A stretch of 57,552 nucleotides of DNA, from positions 1 to 57,552 of IMG/VR virus record IMGVR_UViG_3300025276_000005, one strand, 5' to 3'. Shown here piece after piece: positions 742 through 57,552 of the stretch. A program made the translations under genes and the position numbers. The notes below the pieces were generated by a model. It had not been told where the DNA came from. It searched no databases and saw only the letters and a list, made by a program, of their open reading frames with translations. Every line of letters starts with the position of its first letter. Within the stretch, counting starts at the first letter, position 1. The DNA is from a virus.

Positions 742-1503
742 TTAAAATTTTATAGGGTTACCATACATATCAACAGCGTCGGGCTGTTCATAAATATTAA
801 ATGAATTTTGTGGTAAAACTAGTTGATTCCCTGCTTGAGTGTTAAGACCCGCAGATGTTATGGGGTTTATTTGTGGAGCGTTATTAAATATATTAGGGTC
901 CATAATAGTCGGTAACATGCCTCCGGGATTTGGAGTGGCAGGATTCTGATTATACAATTCAGAGTTAGAAAGCATACTCATTCCGAAATCAGCAATACCT
1001 TGAACTCCTGCCGCTTTAGATTGGTTGGATGCATTCTGTGCCTGTGCTGATGCTATTCCTGCACCCTCAGCCTGTGCTAAAGATAAGTTAGCTCTTTCTG
1101 TTCCTAACCTCGAACCTTCAGTAGCCCCTAATTTATTTAAAGCCTCTAAGTCTTTAGTCTGTTGGTCTGTAATATTTTGCTGTGCTATGTTAGACTGAGC
1201 TAAAACCCTACCTGCAGTAGCAGCACCACCTCTCTGTGACTCACGACCAATCTCCATTGCTTGAGCTGCCTGCTGAGCTATAGCGTCTCTTTGGTTTTCA
1301 TATGGAGACTTACTGATACCAAGCTGCTCGAAGTAATTCACGTCAAGCTGAGCCTGAGCTTCTTTGAATGCTTTATCAGCGTCTCTCTGAGCCTCTTCAG
1401 CTAATCTTTTTTGCTTCCCTGCCTGTATAAATGAACCTCCTGCACTTAATGCTGAAACTCCTGCAGATATTGTTAACGCTGTTGCTGCGGTTATTACTCC
1501 CAT
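742..1503 (-). CDS. Internal virion protein, T7 gp14-like
   Basis: This 253-residue protein begins with a small-residue hydrophobic stretch (about residues 3-28, ITAATALTISAGVSALSAGG) and continues as an Ala/Gln-rich helical region to about residue 175, then a Pro/Asn-rich tail. A single N-terminal hydrophobic segment followed by Ala/Gln helix is typical of the gp14 class of ejected internal proteins of podoviruses. It sits between a GNAT-like gene and the gp15-position gene with 1-2 base spacings, so it is co-translated with them. The predicted role is in the DNA-ejection conduit through the cell envelope. The call is by architecture and order, not by strong sequence identity. Confidence 0.65.
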   Translation of the reverse strand: MGVITAATALTISAGVSALSAGGSFIQAGKQKRLAEEAQRDADKAFKEAQAQLDVNYFEQLGISKSPYENQRDAIAQQAAQAMEIGRESQRGGAATAGRVLAQSNIAQQNITDQQTKDLEALNKLGATEGSRLGTERANLSLAQAEGAGIASAQAQNASNQSKAAGVQGIADFGMSMLSNSELYNQNPATPNPGGMLPTIMDPNIFNNAPQINPITSAGLNTQAGNQLVLPQNSFNIYEQPDAVDMYGNPIKF

Positions 1504-22703: not shown

Positions 22704-23093
22704 TTATTTCTTAGATGAACCACCAAAGAAAAAGTCAACAATAGTGTTTACTTTACTTGACATAGCTCCAAACACAGTACTTATAAAACCTATCTCGTAA
22801 TCAGATAACTGTATAGTGTTCATTACAAAATACTCGAACATAGTATACGATAAAAAGAAATAAGCCGATGTAAATATTATAGCTAGTATCTTCTGTATAT
22901 AACTATCGTCTTTGAAAAGTCCTCTCGCACTTTTTCTATCCTCAACTTCAAGAGCGTACATATCCCTTTCGTGATTCTGTACAACCTCTTTAAACTGTTT
23001 CTTAAGCTGCTCTCTTTCCTCATCCGTTGTAACTACCTCGTCAATAATCTCTGATGCTTGACCTATAAGTTTTCCTATTATGTTTTTAAACAT
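22704..23093 (-). CDS. Holin-like membrane protein
   Basis: I place the start at the ATG 23091-23093 (MFKNIIGKLIGQASEIIDEV), which overlaps the endolysin stop by 8 bases and gives 129 residues. An amphipathic N terminus and a charged helix lead to two hydrophobic segments (about 75-97, ILAIIFTSAYFFLSYTMFEY; and about 105-122, GFISTVFGAMSSKVNTIVDF) and a Ser/Lys tail. This fits phage holins of the two- to three-helix type. Its place beside the endolysin supports the role. Confidence 0.7.
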   Translation of the reverse strand: MFKNIIGKLIGQASEIIDEVVTTDEEREQLKKQFKEVVQNHERDMYALEVEDRKSARGLFKDDSYIQKILAIIFTSAYFFLSYTMFEYFVMNTIQLSDYEIGFISTVFGAMSSKVNTIVDFFFGGSSKK

Positions 23094-23541
23094 CTGCGTA
23101 CCTGTATTTAGTGTCACCGTCCTCGTCTTTAAACGCCTCAAGTACCTGCATTCTATTTCCTTTCTTTACTAAAGATACATGTATCCAAGAAAAATCAAAC
23201 TCGTTTATCATTTGGTCAAACTCTATGCCTGAATCTAAAATCCAATCGTATATAGCCTTATTGTTCATCTCCCCCATCTCCCAAAACTGCAGGTCCAATG
23301 CCTCACCTTTGCAGTGCTGCGAAGAACGACTGCCACCAATAGCACGATTGAGCGACGGGTTGCGATAACCACTACTAATCCTGATAGGACCAACAGCGTC
23401 ACGAAGAGGCTGTAAAAGAAAATCAACAGTACGTTGCAAGTTACGTAAGTGTTTTTTAGTCGGCTCATTATCTATATCTAATCTTTTAGCTGTACTACTA
23501 TTTGTAAACTCAGATAATAAAAAGTTTTTACTTACCCTCAT
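23086..23541 (-). CDS. Endolysin, M15-family peptidase
   Basis: This 151-residue peptidase of the M15/VanY-like (peptidase_M15_3) class has zinc ligands H76 (SSQHCKGEALDL), D83 and H121 (WIHVSL), preceded by the substrate loop SSGYRNPSLNRAIGG. It would cut the peptide bridges of host peptidoglycan. No signal peptide is present, so release depends on the holin next to it. Its start is overlapped by the small membrane gene upstream (23528-23689). Confidence 0.9.
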   Translation of the reverse strand: MRVSKNFLLSEFTNSSTAKRLDIDNEPTKKHLRNLQRTVDFLLQPLRDAVGPIRISSGYRNPSLNRAIGGSRSSQHCKGEALDLQFWEMGEMNNKAIYDWILDSGIEFDQMINEFDFSWIHVSLVKKGNRMQVLEAFKDEDGDTKYRYADV

Positions 23542-28425: not shown

Positions 28426-28860
28426 ATGAATGAGGACTACCTAAAGTATTGGAGAGTTATACGCTACTTCGTAAAAGCAAAGTACAACCTAAGCCAAGGT
28501 GAGCTAGATGTTTTAATGTTCCTAAACTCAGAAGGGCATTTTGGTCAAGAAAAATTTGACGAGTTCAATGAATTGCTTAGTTGGGATAAGCATAGGTTTA
28601 AGAGGTTGTTAAGGGATGGGTGGATACAGGTGTTCAGAAAAAGGTGCGGTCCCACTAAAACGCTTTACATACTATCCTATAAGAGTAAGAGACTTATTCT
28701 CTCTATATATAAAAAACTAAGCGGGGAAGAAATCCCCACTAGCTTGTCAGGCAACCCTATGTTTGCCAAGAATGTAAAGTACACCGATAAGGTGTATCGA
28801 AATTTTATTATAGAGATGAACGCATTTATACGACAACAACGACATCGTGCTCCTGAATAA
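28426..28860 (+). CDS. Winged-helix/HTH DNA-binding protein (MarR-like), candidate regulator
   Basis: I use the ATG at 28426 (MNEDYLKYWRVIRYFVKAKY), giving 144 residues; the frame is open further upstream but that part lies in the promoter region. The layout is helices, then LSQGELDVLMFLNSEGHFGQ, FDEFNELLSWDKHRFKRLLR and a wing-like strand pair (GWIQVFRKRCGPTKTLYILS). This is a MarR-type winged helix. It is the only plus-strand gene inside the minus block and its 3' end overlaps the groES gene end by 35 bases. It could control the switch between the blocks. Confidence 0.6.
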   Translation: MNEDYLKYWRVIRYFVKAKYNLSQGELDVLMFLNSEGHFGQEKFDEFNELLSWDKHRFKRLLRDGWIQVFRKRCGPTKTLYILSYKSKRLILSIYKKLSGEEIPTSLSGNPMFAKNVKYTDKVYRNFIIEMNAFIRQQRHRAPE

Positions 28861-29083
28861 TCGTAAACTGCTCATTCTCAATGAACATAGAGTAACCCGC
28901 ACGGCTATCGTAATATATTGTGTCACTCTTGCTGATTACCTCAACCGATGTTCCGGGCTCAGCAACTATGGCTTTCTTGTATCTTATACCATCGACATCA
29001 TCACCTGATAAAAGTAGCCCTGACTTAGTCTTGACCTCTTCCTTAATTTCTTTGATTGCTATGTATTTTCCTATTGGTTTCAT
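28826..29083 (-). CDS. groES: Co-chaperonin GroES (Cpn10)
   Basis: The 85-residue product MKPIGKYIAIKEIKEEVKTK has the Cpn10 order: an N-terminal strand, a mobile loop KTKSGLLLSGDDVDGIRYKK with the hydrophobic GLLL contact for GroEL, AIVAEPGT, DTIYYDSRAGYSMFI and a C-terminal strand. It is slightly shorter than the bacterial 95-97 residues. It is in one operon with phoH and groEL (gap of zero bases to phoH), so the phage carries a full chaperonin pair. Confidence 0.85.
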   Translation of the reverse strand: MKPIGKYIAIKEIKEEVKTKSGLLLSGDDVDGIRYKKAIVAEPGTSVEVISKSDTIYYDSRAGYSMFIENEQFTIIQEHDVVVVV

Positions 29084-29740
29084 CTAGTATCCTGTTAAAA
29101 GTTTTAGTACGTCATCTATTGCTTTGTGTCTGTGGTTATCCTCTAGGATTACCTTAAACACGTGATTGCTATCCTTAATCTTGTGAACGTCATCAATCGC
29201 AGAGTTTAGCGATGAGGACAAGTCAATCTGTTGGTTATCTCCACAAAAAATCATCATCGAGTTTTTACCTAGTCTACCCAACGCCATACGTAATTGAGGC
29301 TTGGTTAAGTTTTGAAACTCATCTATTATAACAACAGCGTTGTCAAAAGTTCGTCCACGGAAGTGAGCTAGGGATACCAACTCAATCTCCTCGTTCTCAA
29401 CCATCTTCTGAATCTTCTCAGGCTTGTTGTACACCTTACGCATATTGGACATAATAGGAATAAGCCAAGGCTCTAGCTTCTCCTTCTCATCTCCGGGCAG
29501 GAAACCATTGTCCTCCGTAGCGACAGTAGGACGAGTAATAATTACCCTGTCGTACTCTCGCTTGAAGAACATATCGAGAGCCACCTGTACGGCTAAAAGA
29601 GTCTTACCTGAGCCTGCTTTGCCGACTATAAAACTGAAGGCGTGGTTTAGTATGTTCTCCTTTGCTCTTTTTTGCTCGTCTGATAAAGTTATATTAAACT
29701 TTACCTCTCCCCTAGGTGTCCTCTTTTCCTTATTAGCCAT
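29084..29740 (-). CDS. phoH: PhoH-like ATPase
   Basis: This 218-residue PhoH-family P-loop ATPase has Walker A 40-47 (GKAGSGKT) and Walker B VVIIDEFQN with D140-E141. Characteristic motifs are ITRPTVATEDNGFLPGD and MIFCGDNQQID. It consists of the core domain only, as in most marine phage copies. The role is unclear; links to RNA metabolism or phosphate stress are suggested for the family. It lies between a small membrane peptide and groES in the chaperonin operon. Confidence 0.9.
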   Translation of the reverse strand: MANKEKRTPRGEVKFNITLSDEQKRAKENILNHAFSFIVGKAGSGKTLLAVQVALDMFFKREYDRVIITRPTVATEDNGFLPGDEKEKLEPWLIPIMSNMRKVYNKPEKIQKMVENEEIELVSLAHFRGRTFDNAVVIIDEFQNLTKPQLRMALGRLGKNSMMIFCGDNQQIDLSSSLNSAIDDVHKIKDSNHVFKVILEDNHRHKAIDDVLKLLTGY

Positions 29741-29823
29741 TACTTGTCTCTTACTTGGAAAGCACTAATGATAACTATTAAAGCTAACATTGTTATCACC
29801 ATTATTACCACGTTTACAACCAT
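29740..29823 (-). CDS. 27-residue single-span membrane peptide
   Basis: The frame MVVNVVIMVITMLALIVIIS continues to end AFQVRDK. It lies between groEL (20 bases) and phoH, and its TAA overlaps the phoH ATG (TAATG), so the tight packing argues it is translated. It is almost entirely one transmembrane helix with a short basic cytoplasmic-type end. Function unknown. Confidence 0.5.
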   Translation of the reverse strand: MVVNVVIMVITMLALIVIISAFQVRDK

Positions 29824-29843
29824 AATAGTTTTCCTTGTTTTAG

Positions 29844-31451
29844 TTACTTTGTCTCGTAGCTACGTGCCATCGTTACAATCGCATTAGTGCTAAGAAGCGT
29901 GACAGCTACTGACACAGCATTTTGAAGTGCGTTCTTTGTAACCTTCATCGGGTCAATAACACCCATTGACATCAGCTTACCTCTCTTATCATTCTTTACG
30001 TCATAACCAAAACCTCTTGGCGTGTCATCGCTATACAAGTCATCATACATCAAGCCTGCGTTTGATAGTATAGTTTTAATCGGCGAGAGTAAAGACTCTC
30101 TAAGTATGTTATAAGCAGTCTTCTTCTCATCAGACCAACTTTCACTTATCGTCATAAACCTCGCTATGTTCTCAAGCGCCAATCCACCACCGGGTAGTAT
30201 ACCCTCAAGTGTAGCTGAACGTACCGCACATACAGCGTCATCAACCCTGTCAAACAACTCCTTGTGCTCTAGGTCAGTATTTCCACCAACGTATATAACA
30301 CCAACACCACCGGTAAGTGATGCTACCCTTGATAGGATAAACTCACGCTCAGTCTTTGTGCTTGAAGCAGCGTGCGCTCCGTGCAATTGCTCAACTCTCT
30401 CGTCTATATCCTCTTGAGAAACAACGTCATCGTCCTTTAATATAATCGTTGAAGCACGACCAACTATAACCTTGTTAGCTTTACCCAAGTCACTTGGCAT
30501 TATTAAGCTCAAGTCATCGCCCGTCTTCTCACTAAAGTAAGTAGCCCCAACCGATAAAGCAATGTCGTTCATTAGCTCGTGCTGCTTGTAACCAAAGTTA
30601 GGCGGCTGTATACAACATATCTTCAAGCCGTTCTTCATCACGTTTGCCGATAAGGTGTTAATCACGTTTGTCGAGCAAGGCGCAATAATCAATAGCTTAC
30701 CACCCTCTTGGATGATTGGCTTCAATACATTCTCAATCTGTAGTATGTTAGTTATCTCAGCGTCACTAACTAAAACACTAGCACCGTCAAAGATACACTC
30801 GTCCTTCTTGTGGTTGTTAATAAACAAGTTAGATGAGTATCCTCTGTCTACCTTAATACCCATTGTAGTCTCAAAGTGTGTGTCGGATGTTTGTGAACGC
30901 TCAACTGTAACGATACCATTAACGCCAACCTCTTTATACACGTTAGCTATTATGTTACCAATACTTGAGTCGTTGTTCGCTGATATAGTAGCTACACTTA
31001 CTAGAGTTTTATCTGTAACAGGTTTGCTCATCTTCTTAAGACTCTTAACAACCTCGTCAGTACCCTTTACAAGCTCTCTAAGGACCGCTGTCTTATTATG
31101 CTTATCAGTAATCATCTCGTCTCCATTTCGTACTAAGGCGTTAGATAACACGATAGCCGTTGTCGTACCATCACCGGCAGACAATGCAGTCTTCTCCGCT
31201 GCCTCTTTTACAATTCTGACTGCAAGATTCTCCACAGGGTCAAGCAAGCTAATAGATTTAGCCACCGTGACTCCATCCTTAGTAACCGTCATTCCCGATA
31301 AATGTTCTTCTGATTCGATAAGCACTGTATGACCTTGAGGACCAAGGGTGCTCTTTACTGCATTTGTAATCTTCTCTAGACCTTTGAATAATTTTACTCT
31401 ACCTTCTTGAGAGAAATGCAATTCTTTAGGAGTGTAACCTGATTGATTCAT
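29844..31451 (-). CDS. groEL: Chaperonin GroEL
   Basis: This 535-residue chaperonin has the full set of family motifs: TLGPQGHTV (35-43), TKDGVTVAK with catalytic D59, GDGTTTAIVL (93-102), the apical domain region, and RVDDAVCAVRSATLEGILPG with the ATPase Asp. It lacks the GGM-rich tail of bacterial GroEL. The sequence is divergent from host types (for example HTVLIESEEHLSG). It is preceded by a strong promoter and followed by the membrane peptide, phoH and groES. It probably folds phage capsid or tail proteins. Confidence 0.95.
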   Translation of the reverse strand: MNQSGYTPKELHFSQEGRVKLFKGLEKITNAVKSTLGPQGHTVLIESEEHLSGMTVTKDGVTVAKSISLLDPVENLAVRIVKEAAEKTALSAGDGTTTAIVLSNALVRNGDEMITDKHNKTAVLRELVKGTDEVVKSLKKMSKPVTDKTLVSVATISANNDSSIGNIIANVYKEVGVNGIVTVERSQTSDTHFETTMGIKVDRGYSSNLFINNHKKDECIFDGASVLVSDAEITNILQIENVLKPIIQEGGKLLIIAPCSTNVINTLSANVMKNGLKICCIQPPNFGYKQHELMNDIALSVGATYFSEKTGDDLSLIMPSDLGKANKVIVGRASTIILKDDDVVSQEDIDERVEQLHGAHAASSTKTEREFILSRVASLTGGVGVIYVGGNTDLEHKELFDRVDDAVCAVRSATLEGILPGGGLALENIARFMTISESWSDEKKTAYNILRESLLSPIKTILSNAGLMYDDLYSDDTPRGFGYDVKNDKRGKLMSMGVIDPMKVTKNALQNAVSVAVTLLSTNAIVTMARSYETK

Positions 31452-48155: not shown

Positions 48156-48251
48156 TATATTTGCTCTGACTATTGTACTAAATGAGTTGAACTTGACGTT
48201 GACATGTGTAGTTCTATTGGAGAGTCCGTGTGAACGGACTCTCTTTTTTTT
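48156..48251 (+). ncRNA. Candidate small RNA between a promoter and a terminator
   Basis: TATATTTG (48156-48163, a -7 box) is followed at about 57 bases by the hairpin GAGAGTCCGT/ACGGACTCTC (48220-48229 with 48234-48243, loop GTGA) and a run of eight T. No frame longer than a few codons lies between. The predicted transcript is about 80 bases. A -33 element is not clear, so the promoter could also be incidental. Confidence 0.45.
48220..48251 (+). terminator. Terminator of the early block, GTCCG hairpin type
   Basis: A 10-bp GC-rich stem with loop GTGA followed by eight T. It stands at the point where the plus-strand early block and the minus-strand late block converge; the last base is inside the final codons of the giant gene's stop region. 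Confidence 0.9.
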
Positions 48252-51200
48252 ATCTACCACTAAATTTTCCTTTGTTTCTTATACCTCTCTTAGTAGACTT
48301 ACTTTTTTTCTTCTTCTTCTTGTAATTATATAGAGCGTCCTTTTCAGCTTGCTTAGCTTTTCGTTCTATAGCCTTAGCTTTTTTCTCAGCAACTCTATCT
48401 AAGTATCCTTCAGATTCAGGACCGAATGTCTTACGCCATAGTGCTTTGTCATAACGCTTCATATCAGTCTCACTATTATACTGACCTAGCTTATCTTTCT
48501 TTATCTGAGTTTCTGATGTACCTTTAGGTCTATAAGATGAGCTTACACCAAGTACATCATACATATTTTCCTCACTAAAATCTCCTTGGAAAGCATTCGC
48601 AAGTCCAATAAACGGGTCGAACTGAACACCTAAACCAATCTCGGTTAGAGTTCTTACAGCACTACCTATTGCTTTAGATTCACCATTTTCCTTATCTTCC
48701 TTTGATAGCTTAGCTAGTTTAGTAAACTTTCGAGACACAGAACTAAACGGATTTACTACGCTATCTATTGGTCTACTACTGTTACCTCTCATCTTATTGA
48801 CTGCTTCCTCAGCAGATGCACCGAAGTAAGGAATCTGATATATAAGATTAAGACCCATCATTGCATCTTTCATCTTATCTAAAGCCTCCTCTCTATCCTC
48901 ATCCTCGCCCTTAATAAACTTAGCTATGTTAGCCGCAAGTGCGAACATAACATTTGCGACTCCAAGGTTTAATACAAGACCTCTAACACTTTTAGCTGAG
49001 GGTTTCTCGCCCTGACTTACCGACCTAAGTATGTTAGTGGTAGACTGCATCACCTTGTTCATCTGTAAAAAAACAGTACTACCGAACATAGTAAAACCAC
49101 GAACTAAGGAGTTGCTATCCATTTGTAGAGGTATCTTATCTGTACTTCTTCTTGATTGCTGAGTAGTGTTATAGTCCTCAAACTTTGCAACAGCATCAGC
49201 TTCACTCATACCATTAGCAATATCTCTATTGAAGTTAATCATATACCCCATAACACCAAGTACATCACCAAGAACAGTTGGGCTACCTGCAGCAGCTTTT
49301 AACATCCTAAAGGCTTTACTTTTCTGAGATTGAGACGCAGGTTTATATGTTACTGAGCCTGTCTCAAGACCATACACATCACCCTCTAGTCCTTTAAGTA
49401 GACGCTCTTGAAACATAGGTGATAAATTCCAAGCCTTTTTTATTTGTGAAGGCATAGTCGCTATAACTTTAGCTCCATCAACCATAAACATTAATAAGTC
49501 AAGCCCCGGTACTTTTGACTTACCCTTACCTCTGTACGAGTAATCTTCAAAAGCATTTACAAAAGAAGTGGACTGCTTAAGAATCTGAACAGCCTTGAAT
49601 GCTAGAGCAAAACCTGTGTACTTAGTCATTAACTTATCAACAAGGTTTGACTGAATAGCAGCCTTACCACCGTTAGGATTAACAGCGTAGTTGATTGCAT
49701 TCTTTACAGCCTTACCAAGACCTGTCTCAGTCAATAAGGTATTAACAGATTTGAACTTAAATATAGCATTCATCTTCTTAACCCCCTTAGCGTAACCCTT
49801 ATACCTCTCGATAGTTTCAAAGTGGTCTTGAAGAGTAGAGGTAAAATCTGAACCTCTAAGGTCTACATCACCCGTTAAATCAACCCTTTCTTTTAAGGCA
49901 GGAGCAGTCTGTGCATTAAACACACCACTAAAATCACCGTTCTCTAATAGGTCAGCGTTAACTTTAGTCTGAATAGTTTGAGTTGGAAAGTAATTATCAA
50001 CATACCCTAGGTTTACGTTGTTGACATCAGAATAAACCTCATTAGTATTCTCGAAGTACTCGGTACTTAAATACTCTACTGTCTTATCTACAAACTCAAC
50101 AACCTCTTTACCTAAGATAGATTCAATCTCTTTCAGCTTTGAATCAGTAAGACCCTGAGCGAGTAGCTTATCACGTTGAACCTTATTCTTACTAAGAGCG
50201 TAGAGTCTCATAAGTTGGTCTGCATTGAAAGAATCGCTAGATAACACACCGCCCTTAGAAGTTTTTAATCCTGTAATCTTATGAACTCCTGTGGCAAGTT
50301 TTTTCTTAATGTCCTTGTAGCTATCTATACCGTCAATGGTTTTAGCTATCTCATCCATCTTAGTACGAGTATTCTGAAGACCTTTAGTATATACACTCTC
50401 CATCTTATTAAGAGCGTTGTACACGTTTTCTGTAAAGAAAGAACCAACCTTATCAAGACCATTAGTAAGAGTACCTAGGTGCTTTAAGTTATTACCTATA
50501 GCTTGAAGCATTTTACCTACGTTGGTGTAGCTAAACTCCTTAGCGTATTTATTTATAGCCTCACCTAACCCCTTACCAAATAACTCAATACGTCTATCAT
50601 CTCTGTCAGAGTCTAGTTGATTTTTATCCTTAGGTTTACCGTCTTCAAAAAGCTCTGAGTAACCATCCTCAATGTCCTTATCAGCTTGATTCTTAGTCTC
50701 TTTAACCTCAGCTCTGAACGCATCAAGTTTTTTCTTAAGCTCCATACGACCACCTTCTTGACCTCGTTTAATATCTTCAAGTAGTTGTTCAACCTGCTCA
50801 AGACTCATATCTCTGAGCCCATCTACAGACTCGAATATCTCTGAGGCATATAGCTGAGACTTTTCTTTGTTGGTTAACTCTGAAAATTCTTTTTGCAGTA
50901 TGGTATCAATATCAGGGAATAAGGATTTCTTTATATCATCAGCATCAATCTTTACAGGCTTACCATCTATCGTTGCAAGGACTTTATTAAGTACAGCCTC
51001 CATAACCTCAAAGAACTGCTGACTATCAGCATCTACAGATTTAGTTTTCTTTGCAGACTTAGATACTCTTTTACGAATTTCAGATATTAAAGTCTTCTTA
51101 TATTTATCTTCAGACTTATTGTATACGTTAGCCATATAATCCATAAAGCTATCTATAGACACCTCGTTTAGAACATCTACCTTCGCAAACCTATTTAATA

Positions 51201-54200
51201 TCCTCTGTGCCTGACCGTTTGTTATAGAGCCTTTCTTAACTAGAGCCTTAACATTCTCAGTTATTAACTTACTAGACTCTTGTATAGCTTGCTGTGCAGT
51301 CTTAGCACCTTCTTGCAAATCTTTTAATCTCTTAGCGTATAGCTTCTTATCTGTAGTTGTTATCTCCTTACCGAAGTTGCTGTCAAGAGTTGCTTTAGAT
51401 GGTGAGGACTTTTCTTTTAGAGAAAGTTTCTTACGAACACCACGAACTAATTCCTCACGAACAACGTCTGAAGCTCTTTCATATAAAGGTGTAGACTTTA
51501 AATACTCTATAGCATTTTTAAGCAGAATTTCCTGACTAACCTTTGGTGTAATATTCTTAGGACCTTTGTTGTTGTTTTTCTTATTAGCTCTATCTTGAGT
51601 TCTCTTTATAATATCATCAATAGCGTTCTCAACCTTCTTAGAACCCGGTACTAAATCCTCGGTAACCTTAGCTTTAGGTGCTGATTTTTTATTGGTAGCT
51701 AAAACCTCTGATATTAAGTTTGATTCTACACCTTTTTGTTTAAGTAGCTCACCTATAACCACCTCAGAGTATCCAAGACCACGTAGTTTTTCTACAGCAG
51801 ACTTTACCGCTTTTTTATTAGAAGAGTCTCCTAACTCAAACCTAGCCTTGGATGCTTGAGCCTCAGCCTTTGCATCGAATTTGGTTTTAGATTTAGCATC
51901 TAAAGGTTTACCACTAAACAAGTCAGCAAGACCTGTGTTAATAAATTCATCAAGCGTTAGATTCTCTATGTCCTTTATATTGCCTTTAAACAATTCATCA
52001 GACGTAGTAAAGTTTTGTTTTATGTATTTAAAGGTAGCATTCATCCACTCCTTAAACTTAGACTTCTGAGCAGCATTAGTGATAGTCTCACCTTTAGTAG
52101 CCATAAGTTCTACTAAGGCTTCTTCTCTAGCTAACTTCGTATCACCATACTTTTCAATCGCAGCTTTTAAGGCATCAGTACCTTCAACTAATTTTAAACC
52201 ACGAGCCAAAAGAGCTGTACCTTTTTTACCTGAAGCATCTGAACGTAAGAAATCAGTCCATATATGACCGAACTCGTGTATTGGTGTAGCTAAAGAATCA
52301 AATGCAGGGTTTATAAATATCTTACCATCCTTAGTTAGACCAAGGATAGTTTTACCATTAGATTCTTGAGTTCTAACACCGGGTTGGTCTAGTATAGCAT
52401 CAAACTCAACCTGACTTGTTGCTACATTAACTGATGGGAATGCAAACTTTAATTTACCTATAAGTATGTCAAGGTTTGATTGCTTCGTTTTAGCAGGGTC
52501 AGATTGAAAAACCTTATCGTTAAAGAAAGCCCCACCAACTTGCTGTGCTGTGGCTTCTTTAGTAGGGAACTCACCTTTTTTATTTCTCTTAAAAACTCTA
52601 CTAGCCTTAGCTTTCCAAGTTGAGAATACGTCAATACCGTGTTTTGGTTTAGAGATTAAAGCTATCGCTTTACCTTTAGGTCCGAATCCATAGTTATCGT
52701 GAGAAACTTTTGTAACACCGCCTTTATCTGTAACGTCAATACCAACAACAGCAACTATATCTCCGTGTGCTCCCTTAATCATTGAAGGTTCTCCTATTGC
52801 TTTGTATATATTATCAGCAAAGAAAGCGTCTACATTAAACTTAGGGTTTCCTTCAGCTAAAGATTTTATTACAGCCCTATTATTTTTTTTAGCTCCCGGA
52901 GGATATATGATTGATTCAAACAATAACTTCCTATCATCAAGAGTTAAGGTATTCATATCACCCTTAGCTCTTTGGTTTGCTTGTTTAACAACTAAATCAG
53001 CTAACTGCCCTAGGGTTTTAATCTTATTCTTCTTAATAAATTCTTGTAGCTTAATAGCTGCAGCCACTTTCTTCTTCCCTACTGTAGATTTTTGAGAAGA
53101 AGTCTTAGCTTTATCTAAACTAACTTGTAAATCAGCTAAAGCCTTTACTTGATTCTTTTTTGGGGCAGACTTTATTGCCGGGCTTACATATCTGAATATA
53201 GCTTCATTAGAATTAATAGCACTATCAGACATTCTAGCTATAGCCATAGGTACGTGACCTTGAGGTAATTTTCCGTCATCCCATAGCTTATCAAACAACA
53301 CTTTGTTTTCTTCATATAATCTTACAGCGTTGTCAAATTGAGTTTTAGCACCATCTTCATTTACACCTGCCCAAGCGGCTTCTGTATTCTTACCTAGTAT
53401 ATTAAACATTATGCCCCCGTCAACATCCATATTGTTTCCTTGAGCATCTTTAACTGTACCGGAAGCGAGGATGTCTGACATACCTGTTAACATTGGTATA
53501 CCATCAAAGAAGTCAAGAGGCTTAAGCAAATCGTTCTCACTCTTAACACCTATAAAGTCTAGAGCTTTTTGAGTAATCTTTTTAATCGAGTTACTTTCTT
53601 TTATTGGGTTAACTTCATAATCCCTAGAAGCTCCTGATGCTTTAAACTCAATCTCATTCTTATCCATCTTATTCATCTCCTCAGTAATAGCAGATGTTTC
53701 TTGGTCTTGAGTTTCTAATCCATCTAATCTAAACCTAGGAGTAGATTCCTCTGCAACAACCTCTTCCGTTGGAGTGATTGCATCAAGCTCAGACAAGTCT
53801 ATTCTCTCGTCTGCTTCAATCGCATCTACCTCAGCTTGGACTTCCGGGCTGACATCAGATTCTTGAACTTCTTGTGTAGTCTCTGTGGTAAGTTCGCTGA
53901 CTTCGGAGTCTCCCTCTCCCACTGTTTGGCTATCTCCGGCTTGTTCTTGTACATCCACCGTCTCTGTGCTTGGCTCTTGAATGGCATCGGCTTGTTCTTT
54001 TAAAATTTGTTGTTGTTTTTCTGATATCTGCTCAGGTGTTGGGTTTATAACACCCTCCTCTGCTAATTTTTTAGCAGCAAACTCTTCAGTCACTACATTA
54101 GTTGTAGTACTAACATCGTCACCATCAACTGTAATGTCAGTCTCTCTAGCCTCACCTTCTGTGATAGGATTCTCTTGGAGATTCTTTATCTCCTCTTTAA

Positions 54201-56085
54201 TTACCTTAGCTCTATCTTTTGCAGGCTGAGTCTCGTTTGACTTTAAGTTATCCAACTCTACCTGTAGCTTTGTTATCGCATCAAGTGTTGGCTTGTTCAT
54301 GTCAGGACTAACTTTCTTTATATCTTCACTAACTATAGCTTCCTTATACTTCTCATCGTATATAGACTGAAGCTCATTGTCATTTACAATATTGACCTCA
54401 GCTTTAATTAAATCCTGAGGTGAAGCCTCTCTAATAAATTTAGCCATATCAGGACCTGTAACTCTAGCATCCTTACCCGTACCATTGATGGAGTATTTTG
54501 GTGCTTTATATAAACCATAACCCACCGTTAGTGGTGCTGTTGCTGTACCTGCGATACCTTCAAAACCAATCTCAGCAATATCCATCTCCTGACCTGCAAC
54601 CAATCGTCCACCAACCTCACCAAGCGAACCACCAACAGCTTCAACTGCACCACCTGCCGCACCTGCTAAAAGTTTACGACCTGTCATTCCTGCTACCTTA
54701 CCAACAACTTTAGTTGCTATCCCACCTGAGATAGCGTCAATAGCTCCAATAGTAAGACCACGTCCAACAGCCTTAAAACGGATGTTGTTCATCTTCTCTT
54801 GATTCCCTAAAATTTCTCTAATATTTTCTTCAGTCATCTCCTTCCCGCCAAGTTCCTCTTGTAGTAACTCAGCGTATGTAAGACCCGTCTCAAGTGTAGT
54901 ACCTGCCATTCCCATCGCACCAATAAGAGCACCTGCAGGACCTGCGATTGCTGCACCTGCCGCAGCACCACCTGCTGCACCTGCCAAGGTAGCCGGTGTA
55001 GCCATAGCACTTACTGAGGATACAAATAATTGTGGTATAACTGTAGGGTTTGCGATAACACCCTTAATGAATCCTAACCAACCTCCACCATCAGCTTGGT
55101 ATATCTTCTGAAAGTCACGCATCTCATCTGACTCACCCATAGACTGCATACGTTTCTGTGCTGCAATGAAGTCATCAATATCTTCTTGAGAAGCGTCTGA
55201 GCCTTTAGCAAACAACTCAAGTGCTTCATCTACTGAACCACCCTGTGCTTGACCTGCTGCACCCGCTCTATATAAGTCACCAAATAAATCTGTGATTTCA
55301 TTCTTACCAAATACTCTCTCAATCAAAGTGTCTTTCTCTCCCGCAACATCCTCTGTTCCTTTTGAGAAGTCAATAACTTCAGGAGTAAAGTCTGTTGGAA
55401 CAGACTCTTCGATAACACTTAAGGCTTCTTCTTTTGTTATACCGGTATCGTCAGGGTTAATACCTGTAGCTTCCATATAATCAGACTTCCAACGAGTAGG
55501 ATGGTCTTTTGATTTCAAATCTACTCCACCCTCGCCTTTACTTCCCCAATGATACATACCATCAACTTCATTAGTTTGAGGTATAATGCCTGCCTTCCAA
55601 GCACCACGATAGTCGTAGTTTGAATTGTCAATTTGAGGTTCCTCACTATAGGCTTGCTTAAACTCTTCTCTCCAAGCTACAACATTTGGGTCTGTAGCCA
55701 TCCAATTTTGAAACTCAATCTCTTCCTGCTCTGTTAGTGTAAAGTCCGTTGGAACAGACTCTTCAGTAACTTCAGGAGTAAAGTCTATTGCAACAGGCTC
55801 CTCAACTTCTTGAGTAGAAGACTCCAATAATACAGGTTCCTCCTGCTCTGTTGGTGTAATGGATTCCGTAACGTCCTCTTGAATAGTGGAAACGGATTCG
55901 TCTTTTTTTTTTAATGTAAAGTTTTCTAGAGAACCAATATCATACCCCTCTTCATTAAAGAAAGAATATAACTCCTCTCTCTTTACGTCATCAGTTAATG
56001 CAGATATAAAATTATTTAAGTCACCTAAATCGTAACCCTCTTGATTGAAAAAATCAAATAACTCTTGAGCTTTAATCTCGTCCAT
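48250..56085 (-). CDS. Giant ejection protein with zincin metallopeptidase motif (T7 gp16 position)
   Basis: The 2611-residue product begins with two about 27-residue repeats (ELFDFFNQEGYDLGDLNNF and ELYSFFNEEGYDIGSLENF; 8-57). An acidic linker follows with repeated ESVPTDFTPEV, then a YDYRGAWKAGIIP..DGMYHWGS..HPT module (157-197). Hydrophobic Ala/Gly-rich regions at 350-405 and 440-525 may span membranes. A zinc-metallopeptidase motif PIHEFGHIW (H1270, E1271, H1274) with downstream E1321/E1326 matches the MPTase-PolyVal domain of polyvalent proteins. Long helical regions follow, then a basic C terminus (KKKKKSKSTKRGIRNKGKF). It is last in the gp13-16-like cassette. Confidence 0.75.
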   Translation of the reverse strand: MDEIKAQELFDFFNQEGYDLGDLNNFISALTDDVKREELYSFFNEEGYDIGSLENFTLKKKDESVSTIQEDVTESITPTEQEEPVLLESSTQEVEEPVAIDFTPEVTEESVPTDFTLTEQEEIEFQNWMATDPNVVAWREEFKQAYSEEPQIDNSNYDYRGAWKAGIIPQTNEVDGMYHWGSKGEGGVDLKSKDHPTRWKSDYMEATGINPDDTGITKEEALSVIEESVPTDFTPEVIDFSKGTEDVAGEKDTLIERVFGKNEITDLFGDLYRAGAAGQAQGGSVDEALELFAKGSDASQEDIDDFIAAQKRMQSMGESDEMRDFQKIYQADGGGWLGFIKGVIANPTVIPQLFVSSVSAMATPATLAGAAGGAAAGAAIAGPAGALIGAMGMAGTTLETGLTYAELLQEELGGKEMTEENIREILGNQEKMNNIRFKAVGRGLTIGAIDAISGGIATKVVGKVAGMTGRKLLAGAAGGAVEAVGGSLGEVGGRLVAGQEMDIAEIGFEGIAGTATAPLTVGYGLYKAPKYSINGTGKDARVTGPDMAKFIREASPQDLIKAEVNIVNDNELQSIYDEKYKEAIVSEDIKKVSPDMNKPTLDAITKLQVELDNLKSNETQPAKDRAKVIKEEIKNLQENPITEGEARETDITVDGDDVSTTTNVVTEEFAAKKLAEEGVINPTPEQISEKQQQILKEQADAIQEPSTETVDVQEQAGDSQTVGEGDSEVSELTTETTQEVQESDVSPEVQAEVDAIEADERIDLSELDAITPTEEVVAEESTPRFRLDGLETQDQETSAITEEMNKMDKNEIEFKASGASRDYEVNPIKESNSIKKITQKALDFIGVKSENDLLKPLDFFDGIPMLTGMSDILASGTVKDAQGNNMDVDGGIMFNILGKNTEAAWAGVNEDGAKTQFDNAVRLYEENKVLFDKLWDDGKLPQGHVPMAIARMSDSAINSNEAIFRYVSPAIKSAPKKNQVKALADLQVSLDKAKTSSQKSTVGKKKVAAAIKLQEFIKKNKIKTLGQLADLVVKQANQRAKGDMNTLTLDDRKLLFESIIYPPGAKKNNRAVIKSLAEGNPKFNVDAFFADNIYKAIGEPSMIKGAHGDIVAVVGIDVTDKGGVTKVSHDNYGFGPKGKAIALISKPKHGIDVFSTWKAKASRVFKRNKKGEFPTKEATAQQVGGAFFNDKVFQSDPAKTKQSNLDILIGKLKFAFPSVNVATSQVEFDAILDQPGVRTQESNGKTILGLTKDGKIFINPAFDSLATPIHEFGHIWTDFLRSDASGKKGTALLARGLKLVEGTDALKAAIEKYGDTKLAREEALVELMATKGETITNAAQKSKFKEWMNATFKYIKQNFTTSDELFKGNIKDIENLTLDEFINTGLADLFSGKPLDAKSKTKFDAKAEAQASKARFELGDSSNKKAVKSAVEKLRGLGYSEVVIGELLKQKGVESNLISEVLATNKKSAPKAKVTEDLVPGSKKVENAIDDIIKRTQDRANKKNNNKGPKNITPKVSQEILLKNAIEYLKSTPLYERASDVVREELVRGVRKKLSLKEKSSPSKATLDSNFGKEITTTDKKLYAKRLKDLQEGAKTAQQAIQESSKLITENVKALVKKGSITNGQAQRILNRFAKVDVLNEVSIDSFMDYMANVYNKSEDKYKKTLISEIRKRVSKSAKKTKSVDADSQQFFEVMEAVLNKVLATIDGKPVKIDADDIKKSLFPDIDTILQKEFSELTNKEKSQLYASEIFESVDGLRDMSLEQVEQLLEDIKRGQEGGRMELKKKLDAFRAEVKETKNQADKDIEDGYSELFEDGKPKDKNQLDSDRDDRRIELFGKGLGEAINKYAKEFSYTNVGKMLQAIGNNLKHLGTLTNGLDKVGSFFTENVYNALNKMESVYTKGLQNTRTKMDEIAKTIDGIDSYKDIKKKLATGVHKITGLKTSKGGVLSSDSFNADQLMRLYALSKNKVQRDKLLAQGLTDSKLKEIESILGKEVVEFVDKTVEYLSTEYFENTNEVYSDVNNVNLGYVDNYFPTQTIQTKVNADLLENGDFSGVFNAQTAPALKERVDLTGDVDLRGSDFTSTLQDHFETIERYKGYAKGVKKMNAIFKFKSVNTLLTETGLGKAVKNAINYAVNPNGGKAAIQSNLVDKLMTKYTGFALAFKAVQILKQSTSFVNAFEDYSYRGKGKSKVPGLDLLMFMVDGAKVIATMPSQIKKAWNLSPMFQERLLKGLEGDVYGLETGSVTYKPASQSQKSKAFRMLKAAAGSPTVLGDVLGVMGYMINFNRDIANGMSEADAVAKFEDYNTTQQSRRSTDKIPLQMDSNSLVRGFTMFGSTVFLQMNKVMQSTTNILRSVSQGEKPSAKSVRGLVLNLGVANVMFALAANIAKFIKGEDEDREEALDKMKDAMMGLNLIYQIPYFGASAEEAVNKMRGNSSRPIDSVVNPFSSVSRKFTKLAKLSKEDKENGESKAIGSAVRTLTEIGLGVQFDPFIGLANAFQGDFSEENMYDVLGVSSSYRPKGTSETQIKKDKLGQYNSETDMKRYDKALWRKTFGPESEGYLDRVAEKKAKAIERKAKQAEKDALYNYKKKKKKSKSTKRGIRNKGKFSGR

Positions 56086-56097
56086 AATCTAGTCTTG

Positions 56098-57552
56098 TTA
56101 TATTGAAATAGGTGTTTTTTTCTTTGGAGTGCTACTTGGTGTAGGCTTATTAGATATGCTGCCTGTAAAATCTTCTAGGTTTAAGTCTGTAACTCTAGTA
56201 ATAAAATCCTTCATTGCCTTCTTGTTAGAGTCAACCTTGTTACCTGTAAACATTTGAGGTCTTATAGTAAGAGATATCTCATTGCCATCACTATCTTCCA
56301 CGCCATCTTTTCCTACAGTTATTTTAATTGTACCGTCACGTGAAACAGATGACTCCAATCCTAGGCTTGCAAAATCGGAGTTAGGTCCAAAGTTTTTATT
56401 GAAATAATCTTGAGATGACTCTTCATCCTTCCCTATTCTACTCTGTGGTTTAATAAATAAACCATCAGTTACAGAATCATTAATAAAGGTGTCACGAATT
56501 ATTATTTTTTCGTCATTAGTTTCAGTTATACCCTTATCAACTTGATACTCAGCGTCATTATCTATATCTAATTCATCTAAGTATTGAGCTACATTGTACT
56601 CTTGAGCTACCTCACCCATTACAGCTTCAATAAATCCTTTCTTAGTATTAGCGTTAATTTTCTTAGAAGTCTCTAAGCCATCACCATCTAATCTAATTAT
56701 AGTAAGACCATCCTTAGTCCTTATAATATCTTCTATCGTTGAGTCTAAACTACGAACAAAACTGATAGCGTCATCTATAGTAGCATCACTACCCTCCTCT
56801 ATATTAAATAAGTTACCAACCTTAGCTACAGAGTTTCTTATAACTGCTTTACTTTCTTCTTTGACATCCTCCCACTGCTTAGGTTTTTTAGCGTTTTTAA
56901 CCTGAACTGCTAGAAGTAAATTTCTTTGATTAAGATTCTCTTTATAGTATACAGCCTCGACCTGTGCCTTTTCCTCTTTAGTCGTAGCAGCCTTCATATC
57001 AGCATTGTGTTTTTCTTTACCTTGCTTTATGTCTTGCTCAATTTTATCAACCGATAAATTTGCTAATTCAGTTCTATTGTCTAGTGTATCTTTCTTATAA
57101 TCTATCTCAAGTCCTTTTAACTCATTAGCCTTAGTTAAAGCATCTCTTTTTGCTTGACTCTCTGTAGTCTCAGAAAAACCTAAACGAGCCATAAACTGCT
57201 CATTAAGGATATCGTAAGCCTCATCTTTTTGGTCCTTTGTTAAGTCAGGTACTAGCACACCGCTATTAGGATTGTTAGGGTCAGGTATAAGAACTATAAT
57301 ACCTTCCTTCCCTTTGTCCTCTATATTCTCAGAGTACTCATAATCACCACTTCCATCAGCTAATATACTTTGAGCTGCGTACGTAGGCTGAAGTGCTGCT
57401 TTTATATAATTCTCTTTAGCACTTGCAAATAAAGGGTTCTCAAGTATACTATCTCTAGTCCCTACATTACCTTCGTTAATAGACTTTAAGTACCTATTGT
57501 CAAAAGATTTAGCAGCATCCTCGCCAAACTTTTTCGTATCAAACTTATCAAT
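56098..57552 (-). CDS. Virion ejection protein, T7 gp15 position; C-terminal part (gene crosses the contig joint)
   Basis: Minus-strand frame ending TAA at 56098-56100; it stays open through 57425 and joins the frame that starts at 739 on the other side of the joint (about 688 residues in all). Residues in this half include AADGSGDYEYSENIED-like acidic stretches, a repeated NNPNSGVLVPDL segment, long helices, and a Pro/Thr/Ser C terminus. A GTG at 57256-57258 should not be taken as a start, since the frame is continuous upstream. 12 bases separate it from the giant gene. Confidence 0.8.
   Translation of the reverse strand: MDKFDTKKFGEDAAKSFDNRYLKSINEGNVGTRDSILENPLFASAKENYIKAALQPTYAAQSILADGSGDYEYSENIEDKGKEGIIVLIPDPNNPNSGVLVPDLTKDQKDEAYDILNEQFMARLGFSETTESQAKRDALTKANELKGLEIDYKKDTLDNRTELANLSVDKIEQDIKQGKEKHNADMKAATTKEEKAQVEAVYYKENLNQRNLLLAVQVKNAKKPKQWEDVKEESKAVIRNSVAKVGNLFNIEEGSDATIDDAISFVRSLDSTIEDIIRTKDGLTIIRLDGDGLETSKKINANTKKGFIEAVMGEVAQEYNVAQYLDELDIDNDAEYQVDKGITETNDEKIIIRDTFINDSVTDGLFIKPQSRIGKDEESSQDYFNKNFGPNSDFASLGLESSVSRDGTIKITVGKDGVEDSDGNEISLTIRPQMFTGNKVDSNKKAMKDFITRVTDLNLEDFTGSISNKPTPSSTPKKKTPISI
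57426..57552. repeat. Terminal direct repeat, copy 2
   Basis: Identical to bases 1-127; see the first entry. Confidence 0.95.

What the first reader, a model, noticed from the sequence alone, without database searches (positions are those of the whole stretch)
48250..56085. 2611-residue ejected protein carrying an HEFGH metallopeptidase motif
The zincin motif PIHEFGHIW at 1268-1276 with downstream acidic residues in an EEALVELMA helix fits the MPTase-PolyVal domain described in polyvalent proteins. T7 gp16 has a transglycosylase instead. A protease delivered with the DNA could cut a host defence protein, process the ejection proteins or open the periplasm. The size (14% of the genome), the repeats and the membrane-like segments make this the main candidate for an undescribed host-takeover effector.
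Basis: partly seen in the sequence, partly recalled or inferred. Interest (0 to 1): 0.75.

Follow-up and report, generated by a model that had tools for sequence, protein, structure and literature searches.

The report
Phage ejection protein with swappable protease
A marine flavobacterial phage encodes a 2611-residue protein, probably injected with its DNA, whose middle section is a zinc-protease cassette that close relatives exchange like a plug-in; this fits the known 'polyvalent protein' kind of phage effector, in an unusually clean chassis-plus-cartridge form.

Summary
ORF 48250-56085 lies on the minus strand, encodes 2611 aa, and has HEFGH at residues 1270-1274. It is a real zincin. H1270, E1271, H1274 and E1322 are invariant in 54 of 54 aligned relatives. 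A search on the upstream domain alone, blind to the motif, still gave HEFGH in 28 of 28 uncut loci. Confident AlphaFold models resemble zincins above all else (anthrax lethal factor catalytic domain, PPEP-1/-3, IrrE), though Z stays at or below 7. Pfam's MPTase-PolyVal model (PF18818) does not match. However, homologs of the same domain occur in a canonical polyvalent protein carrying Kinase-PolyVal, ART-PolyVal, PBECR2, InPase and LPD38.

New here: the N- and C-terminal parts behave as a conserved chassis, and the middle (partner domain A plus zincin) as an exchangeable cassette. Two phages about 98% identical elsewhere carry unrelated cassettes with different zincins. The window's own cassette shows recent recombination. 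About half of the chassis proteins carry no HEXXH. The zincin is therefore a payload, not a universal ejection part.

Whether it cuts a host protein or the giant protein itself is unresolved. Virion presence is inferred from gene position and from relatives annotated as structural; ejection is inferred.

The parts
48250..56085 (-). Giant late protein, 2611 aa: chassis plus payload cassette
   Evidence: seven relatives in the first viral scan
55900..56085 (-). N-terminal repeats (two F...GY units of about 30 residues) ending in LKKKDE (residues 58-63), then an acidic Ser/Thr/Glu-rich linker
   Evidence: the KKK[D/E/N/Q] motif occurs in the N-terminal 140 aa of 49/71 relatives against 1.1 expected
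54406..55374 (-). N-terminal chassis core (residues 238-560), Gly/Ala-rich, weakly membrane-like
   Evidence: phrog_32588, E 1.8e-73 over 248-675; used to find 80 loci
52027..54027 (-). Recombined cassette, residues 687-1353 (linker, domain A, most of the zincin)
   Evidence: third-codon-position identity to L003/L015 84% inside 661-1400 against 55% outside, Fisher p 1.8e-32; best segment 687-1353
52636..53589 (-). Domain A (residues 833-1150), conserved partner domain of the zincin; invariant AWA, SNE..R and H.NY residues
   Evidence: distant counterpart beside other zincins in the opposite order
51871..52560 (-). Zincin metallopeptidase domain (residues 1176-1405)
   Evidence: AlphaFold pLDDT 91.6 in the two-domain model and 82.3 alone; zincin fold matches
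52264..52278 (-). HEFGH motif, residues 1270-1274
   Evidence: H1270, E1271, G1273, H1274 in 54/54
52120..52122 (-). E1322, third zinc ligand (predicted)
   Evidence: 54/54; on a helix downstream of the active-site helix in the models
48736..50538 (-). C-terminal chassis region, residues 1850-2450
   Evidence: profile matches in about half of the relatives
48253..48528 (-). Conserved C-terminal tail, residues 2520-2611, basic end
   Evidence: kept even in L008/L009, whose residues 1476-2528 are largely unrelated
56098..57425 (-). Downstream part of the 688-aa gene upstream of the giant gene; the rest lies at 2-739 across the genome ends
   Evidence: phrog_35506 match on the 2-739 part; position of T7 gp15 / N4 gp51
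742..1503 (-). 253-aa late protein, position of T7 gp14 / N4 gp52
   Evidence: phrog_13764 virion structural protein, E 2.2e-15

Best explanation
This is a phage polyvalent protein built as a chassis with an exchangeable cassette. The chassis (N-terminal repeats and KKKD signal, Gly/Ala-rich core, C-terminal region and tail) is carried in the virion as the last of three internal proteins (about 253, 688 and 2611 aa) and leaves with the DNA (inferred). The cassette is domain A plus a zinc-dependent endopeptidase: H1270, H1274 and E1322 hold the zinc and E1271 activates water (strongly predicted). The peptidase acts after delivery in the infected cell (inferred). I put host-protein cleavage at about 45%, self-cleavage that frees domain A or the cassette at about 35%, and anything else at about 20%.
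For: Catalytic quartet invariant in 54/54 and HEFGH in loci found without the motif. Models: pLDDT 91.6, pTM 0.89; domain alone pLDDT 82.3. Structural neighbours are mostly zincins from several families: lethal factor catalytic domain Z 7.0, rmsd 4.3, 138 aligned; PPEP-3 6.4; PPEP-1 6.3; IrrE 5.7; then ACE2, MATCAP, aureolysin. Purifying selection, dN/dS about 0.1. Same zincin in a Tannerella MAG protein with five polyvalent-type domains above Pfam cutoffs. Cassette exchange: L133 against L134 about 98% identical outside, about 20% inside residues 601-1350, HEMGH against HEVTH; recombination tract 687-1353 in the window. Variable neighbouring domains: ART-like insert in L009 but not in its near-twin L008, GNAT in Gundel. 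27 of 53 chassis proteins lack HEXXH. Gene order equals N4 gp52-gp51-gp50, whose vRNAP is ejected and has a C1 domain with the zincin HExxH motif (PMC12633501).
Against: No experiment shows zinc, peptidase activity, virion presence or ejection of this protein. PF18818 gives no match. Best fold Z is 7, under the aligner's own caution line of 8, and Foldseek alone finds no PDB match with E under 1. hhalign to the N4 vRNAP zincin aligns only the motif (E 0.002, probability 13%). No recognised second effector domain in the window's own protein.
Confidence: 0.62

Rival explanations
1. Self-processing protease: the zincin cuts the giant protein itself, during assembly or after delivery, to release domain A or to let a very long chain fit or thread.
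For: Iyer et al. (PMC5512222) propose this for P1 DdrB, which is processed before packaging. The zincin travels with a domain-A-like partner in both orders, as expected if one frees the other.
Against: The same chassis exists without any HEXXH in 27 of 53 proteins, so the chassis does not need cutting. The same paper says N4 vRNAP is packaged unprocessed. No conserved cleavage site was identified; the KKKD-type signal also occurs in phi13:2 and phi38:1, which have no HEXXH.
Confidence: 0.35
2. Envelope-opening enzyme standing in for the T7 gp16 transglycosylase, needed for DNA entry.
For: Same late-gene position as T7 gp16 / N4 gp50.
Against: Half of the chassis proteins lack any HEXXH and the phi38:1, phi13:2 and Panino relatives have none. 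The cassette is swapped, unlike a core entry enzyme. The closest fold neighbours cut proteins, not peptidoglycan.
Confidence: 0.06
3. Catalytically dead zincin kept as a structural or scaffolding domain, as may be the case in N4 vRNAP, whose equivalent region is required for encapsidation.
For: Iyer et al. (PMC5512222) report that the N4 MPTase region is needed for packaging; no activity has been shown here.
Against: All four catalytic residues are invariant in 54/54, including the general base E1271, which a structural zinc site would not need.
Confidence: 0.07
4. Chance HEXXH in a disordered phage protein.
For: HEXXH is a short motif.
Against: Expected 0.004 occurrences, invariant across relatives, confident fold.
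Confidence: 0.01

Closest known systems
Phage polyvalent proteins with zincin-like MPTase domains (Iyer et al. 2017, PMC5512222)
   Same: Giant multidomain late phage protein; zincin with HEXXH and a downstream helix Glu; the same zincin family occurs beside ART-PolyVal, Kinase-PolyVal, PBECR2, InPase and LPD38 in L213; relatives add ART-like and GNAT domains.
   Different: No match to PF18818; the window's own protein has no other recognised polyvalent domain; the exchange is of a whole cassette in a fixed slot; Asn1259 stands at the end of the second hairpin strand, where the paper describes a His for one widespread phage clade (my reading of its text).
N4 virion RNA polymerase gp50 (Schitoviridae)
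   Same: Giant last protein of a small-medium-large late triad; C1 domain with the zincin HExxH motif (PMC12633501).
   Different: No RNA polymerase domain recognised here; zincin similarity limited to the motif (hhalign E 0.002).
T7 gp16 (ejection protein; from general knowledge)
   Same: Largest late protein at the end of the internal-protein gene triad.
   Different: T7 gp16 carries a transglycosylase; this protein carries a metallopeptidase. No sequence match was tested.
Gundel_1 Gundel1_74 and Elemovirus giant structural proteins
   Same: Zincin with HEFGH (28% identity, E 8e-10) or HEIFH (hhalign E 5.8e-8, 131 columns) in the giant late protein.
   Different: Different inserts (GNAT, ART-like) and different flanks.
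Anthrax lethal factor / PPEP metallopeptidases
   Same: Best structural neighbours of the model (Z 7.0 and 6.4).
   Different: No significant sequence similarity to any PDB chain; resemblance of fold only.

Membership tests
Zincin metallopeptidases | HEXXH with invariant His, Glu, His | tested here: met
   54/54; 28/28 in a motif-blind search
Zincin metallopeptidases | Third ligand Glu on a helix downstream of the active-site helix | tested here: met
   E1322 54/54, 48 residues after H1274, on a downstream long helix of the models
Zincin metallopeptidases | Zincin fold | tested here: inconclusive
   neighbours mostly zincins but best Z 7.0, under 8; Foldseek none significant
Zincin metallopeptidases | Zinc binding and peptidase activity | not testable with these tools
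   needs purified protein
MPTase-PolyVal (Pfam PF18818) | Score over the curated cut-off | tested here: not met
   no match at E <= 10; none in all-Pfam scans
Polyvalent proteins (Iyer et al. 2017) | Zincin homologous to those in canonical polyvalent proteins | tested here: met
   profile E 9e-38 to the zincin of L213, which carries five polyvalent-type Pfam domains over cut-off
Polyvalent proteins (Iyer et al. 2017) | Several enzymatic domains of different activity in one chain | tested here: inconclusive
   window protein: zincin plus uncharacterised domain A only; relatives have GNAT (over one cut-off) and ART-like (below cut-off) inserts
Polyvalent proteins (Iyer et al. 2017) | Delivered into the host with the DNA | not testable with these tools
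   gene order and 'structural' annotation of relatives only
N4-type vRNAP | RNA polymerase domain | tested here: inconclusive
   no Pfam or PHROG polymerase match in the 2611 aa

The most novel reading that the evidence does not exclude
The cassette is a guided protease: domain A, whose model weakly resembles the YTH reader of methylated RNA (Z 5.8, rmsd 4.0, 144 of 191 residues) and has an invariant Trp in an AWA motif, senses a modified nucleic acid or another cue in the infected cell and directs or triggers the zincin. The chassis would then be a general delivery vehicle into which phages plug different sensor-protease pairs against different hosts.
Probability: 0.07. Interest if true: 0.8.

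Novelty: new variant of a known kind. Interest (0 to 1): 0.5.

Why it matters
It gives a clean natural comparison (same chassis, different protease cassette, or no protease) in phages with cultured flavobacterial relatives. That makes an open question directly testable: what the metallopeptidase domains of virion-delivered polyvalent proteins actually cut. It also shows a modular phage protein with natural cassette boundaries.

Tried and rejected
PF18818 and all-Pfam scans of the window domain: no match. PDB sequence searches with the protein and with the zincin profile: none. Foldseek against PDB: nothing under E 1. LPD38 and ART-PolyVal in the window genome: none, but the LPD38 control also rang nowhere, so that is uninformative. 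hhalign of the C-terminal region to the L213 stretch around LPD38: E 0.21, not significant. YTH family by sequence for domain A: not found. Apparent splits of the giant gene after the zincin in L034 and L055: the frame simply continues without a convincing start, so probably frameshifts in the assembly, not separate genes. The near-perfect identity of residues 1201-1300 to L003 was first read as extreme constraint; low synonymous divergence shows that recent recombination contributes.

Full report
What is there. The window is a complete circular phage genome (57425 bp plus a 127-bp end overlap). Its portal is 76% identical to a Manatee Spring podovirus and about 45-49% to Elemovirus and Maribacter phage Panino, so it belongs with flavobacterial podoviruses. 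The last gene of the minus-strand late block, 48250-56085, encodes 2611 aa. Upstream lie a 688-aa gene across the genome ends and a 253-aa gene matching a virion structural PHROG. This small-medium-large order is that of N4 gp52-gp51-gp50, whose gp50 is an ejected virion polymerase (PMC12633501), and of the T7 gp14-15-16 set as described in PMC10925440. Relatives in Gundel and Elemovirus are annotated 'structural protein', as is phi38:1 gp101. I did not see the proteomics behind those labels.

The motif is real and catalytic-looking. HEFGH is the only HEXXH in the protein and 0.004 were expected. In 54 aligned relatives H1270, E1271, H1274 and E1322 never vary, while neighbouring E1321 does. 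Some of those relatives were found with the motif itself as bait, so I repeated the search with the upstream domain only: 28 of 28 uncut loci carry HEFGH. Other relatives have HEMGH. Selection on the cassette is purifying (dN/dS about 0.1).

The fold. A two-domain model (residues 785-1445) has mean pLDDT 91.6 and pTM 0.89; the zincin alone has 82.3. HEFGH lies on one helix and E1322 on a later long helix after a variable stretch, as in zincins. The structural second look is dominated by zincins of several families: lethal factor catalytic domain Z 7.0 (rmsd 4.3, 138 aligned), PPEP-3 6.4, PPEP-1 6.3, IrrE 5.7, then ACE2, MATCAP and aureolysin. Z stays below 8 and Foldseek alone gives nothing significant, so the fold evidence is supportive, not conclusive. 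The motif, the invariance and the neighbours together make the zincin assignment safe.

Kinship to polyvalent proteins. Pfam's MPTase-PolyVal model does not match. In bacterial genome contigs, however, the same zincin (profile E 9e-38) lies in a 3168-aa Tannerella MAG protein with InPase, LPD38, Kinase-PolyVal, ART-PolyVal and PBECR2, all over cut-off, and in an Aquimarina protein with LPD23. Iyer et al. (PMC5512222, read) describe 12 clades of such MPTases, with self-processing or host-directed roles proposed and none settled.

Chassis and cassette. A search with the N-terminal core only (blind to the protease) gave 80 loci. Of 53 complete proteins, 26 carry an HEXXH, but only 4 of them the HE[FM]GH type; 22 have other zincin-like motifs (HE[IV]FHA, HE[LV][LV]HG, HEVTH) and 27 have none. 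L133 and L134 are about 98% identical over residues 1-600 and beyond 1500, yet unrelated between about 600 and 1350, with HEMGH in one and HEVTH in the other. The window shows the same kind of exchange within one cassette type: third-codon-position identity to L003 is 84% inside residues 661-1400 and 55% outside (p 1.8e-32, best tract 687-1353). Near-twins L008 and L009 differ by an insert of about 170 aa just before the cassette that weakly matches ART-PolyVal (E 0.0068, below cut-off). Gundel has a GNAT domain upstream. L008/L009 even replace residues 1476-2528 but keep the C-terminal tail.

Partner domain. Domain A (833-1150) precedes the zincin in most relatives but is absent or undetected in some. 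A distant counterpart follows the HEIFH-type zincins in the opposite order (hhalign E 1.1e-6 for domain A, 9e-7 for the zincin, single comparisons). Zincin and domain A therefore probably work together. Its weak likeness to YTH domains (Z 5.8) is a lead only.

Mechanism. Shown: invariant catalytic residues, confident model, cassette exchange, frequent absence. Inferred: virion location, ejection, activity. Because the chassis persists without any HEXXH, the protease is unlikely to be a core entry enzyme or essential to chassis maturation; because it is swapped against other zincins, it behaves like a payload. Cutting a host protein is my first choice (about 45%), freeing domain A or the cassette by self-cleavage the second (about 35%).

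Noticed in passing
55897-55914 (residues 58-63): N-terminal signature [V/L]KKK[D/E] followed by a Ser/Glu-rich linker: KKK[D/E/N/Q] within the first 140 aa of 49 of 71 giant relatives against 1.1 expected; the only [VLIF]KKK[DE] in window ORFs. Also seen in phi13:2 and phi38:1 relatives that have no HEXXH. Perhaps a packaging or processing signal.
   Followed up: partly
52636-53589: Domain A, a conserved partner of phage zincins with invariant AWA, SNE..R and H.NY residues and weak structural likeness to YTH domains.
   Followed up: partly
28826-31451: By reading, a GroEL-like 535-aa ORF (29844-31451), a GroES-like 85-aa ORF (28826-29083) and a PhoH-like ORF (29084-29740), all on the minus strand; not checked against families.
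   Followed up: no
L002:13902-25481: The Manatee Spring podovirus giant protein holds two HEFGH motifs, at ORF positions 1621 and 2506; the first lies in a different sequence context.
   Followed up: no
L212: A contig filed under an Aliivibrio MAG encodes a full chassis plus cassette protein (2645 aa, 70% identity in the zincin); probably a phage contig binned with that genome.
   Followed up: no
23086-23541: By reading, an ORF resembling an M15-type peptidase, a possible endolysin; not tested.
   Followed up: no
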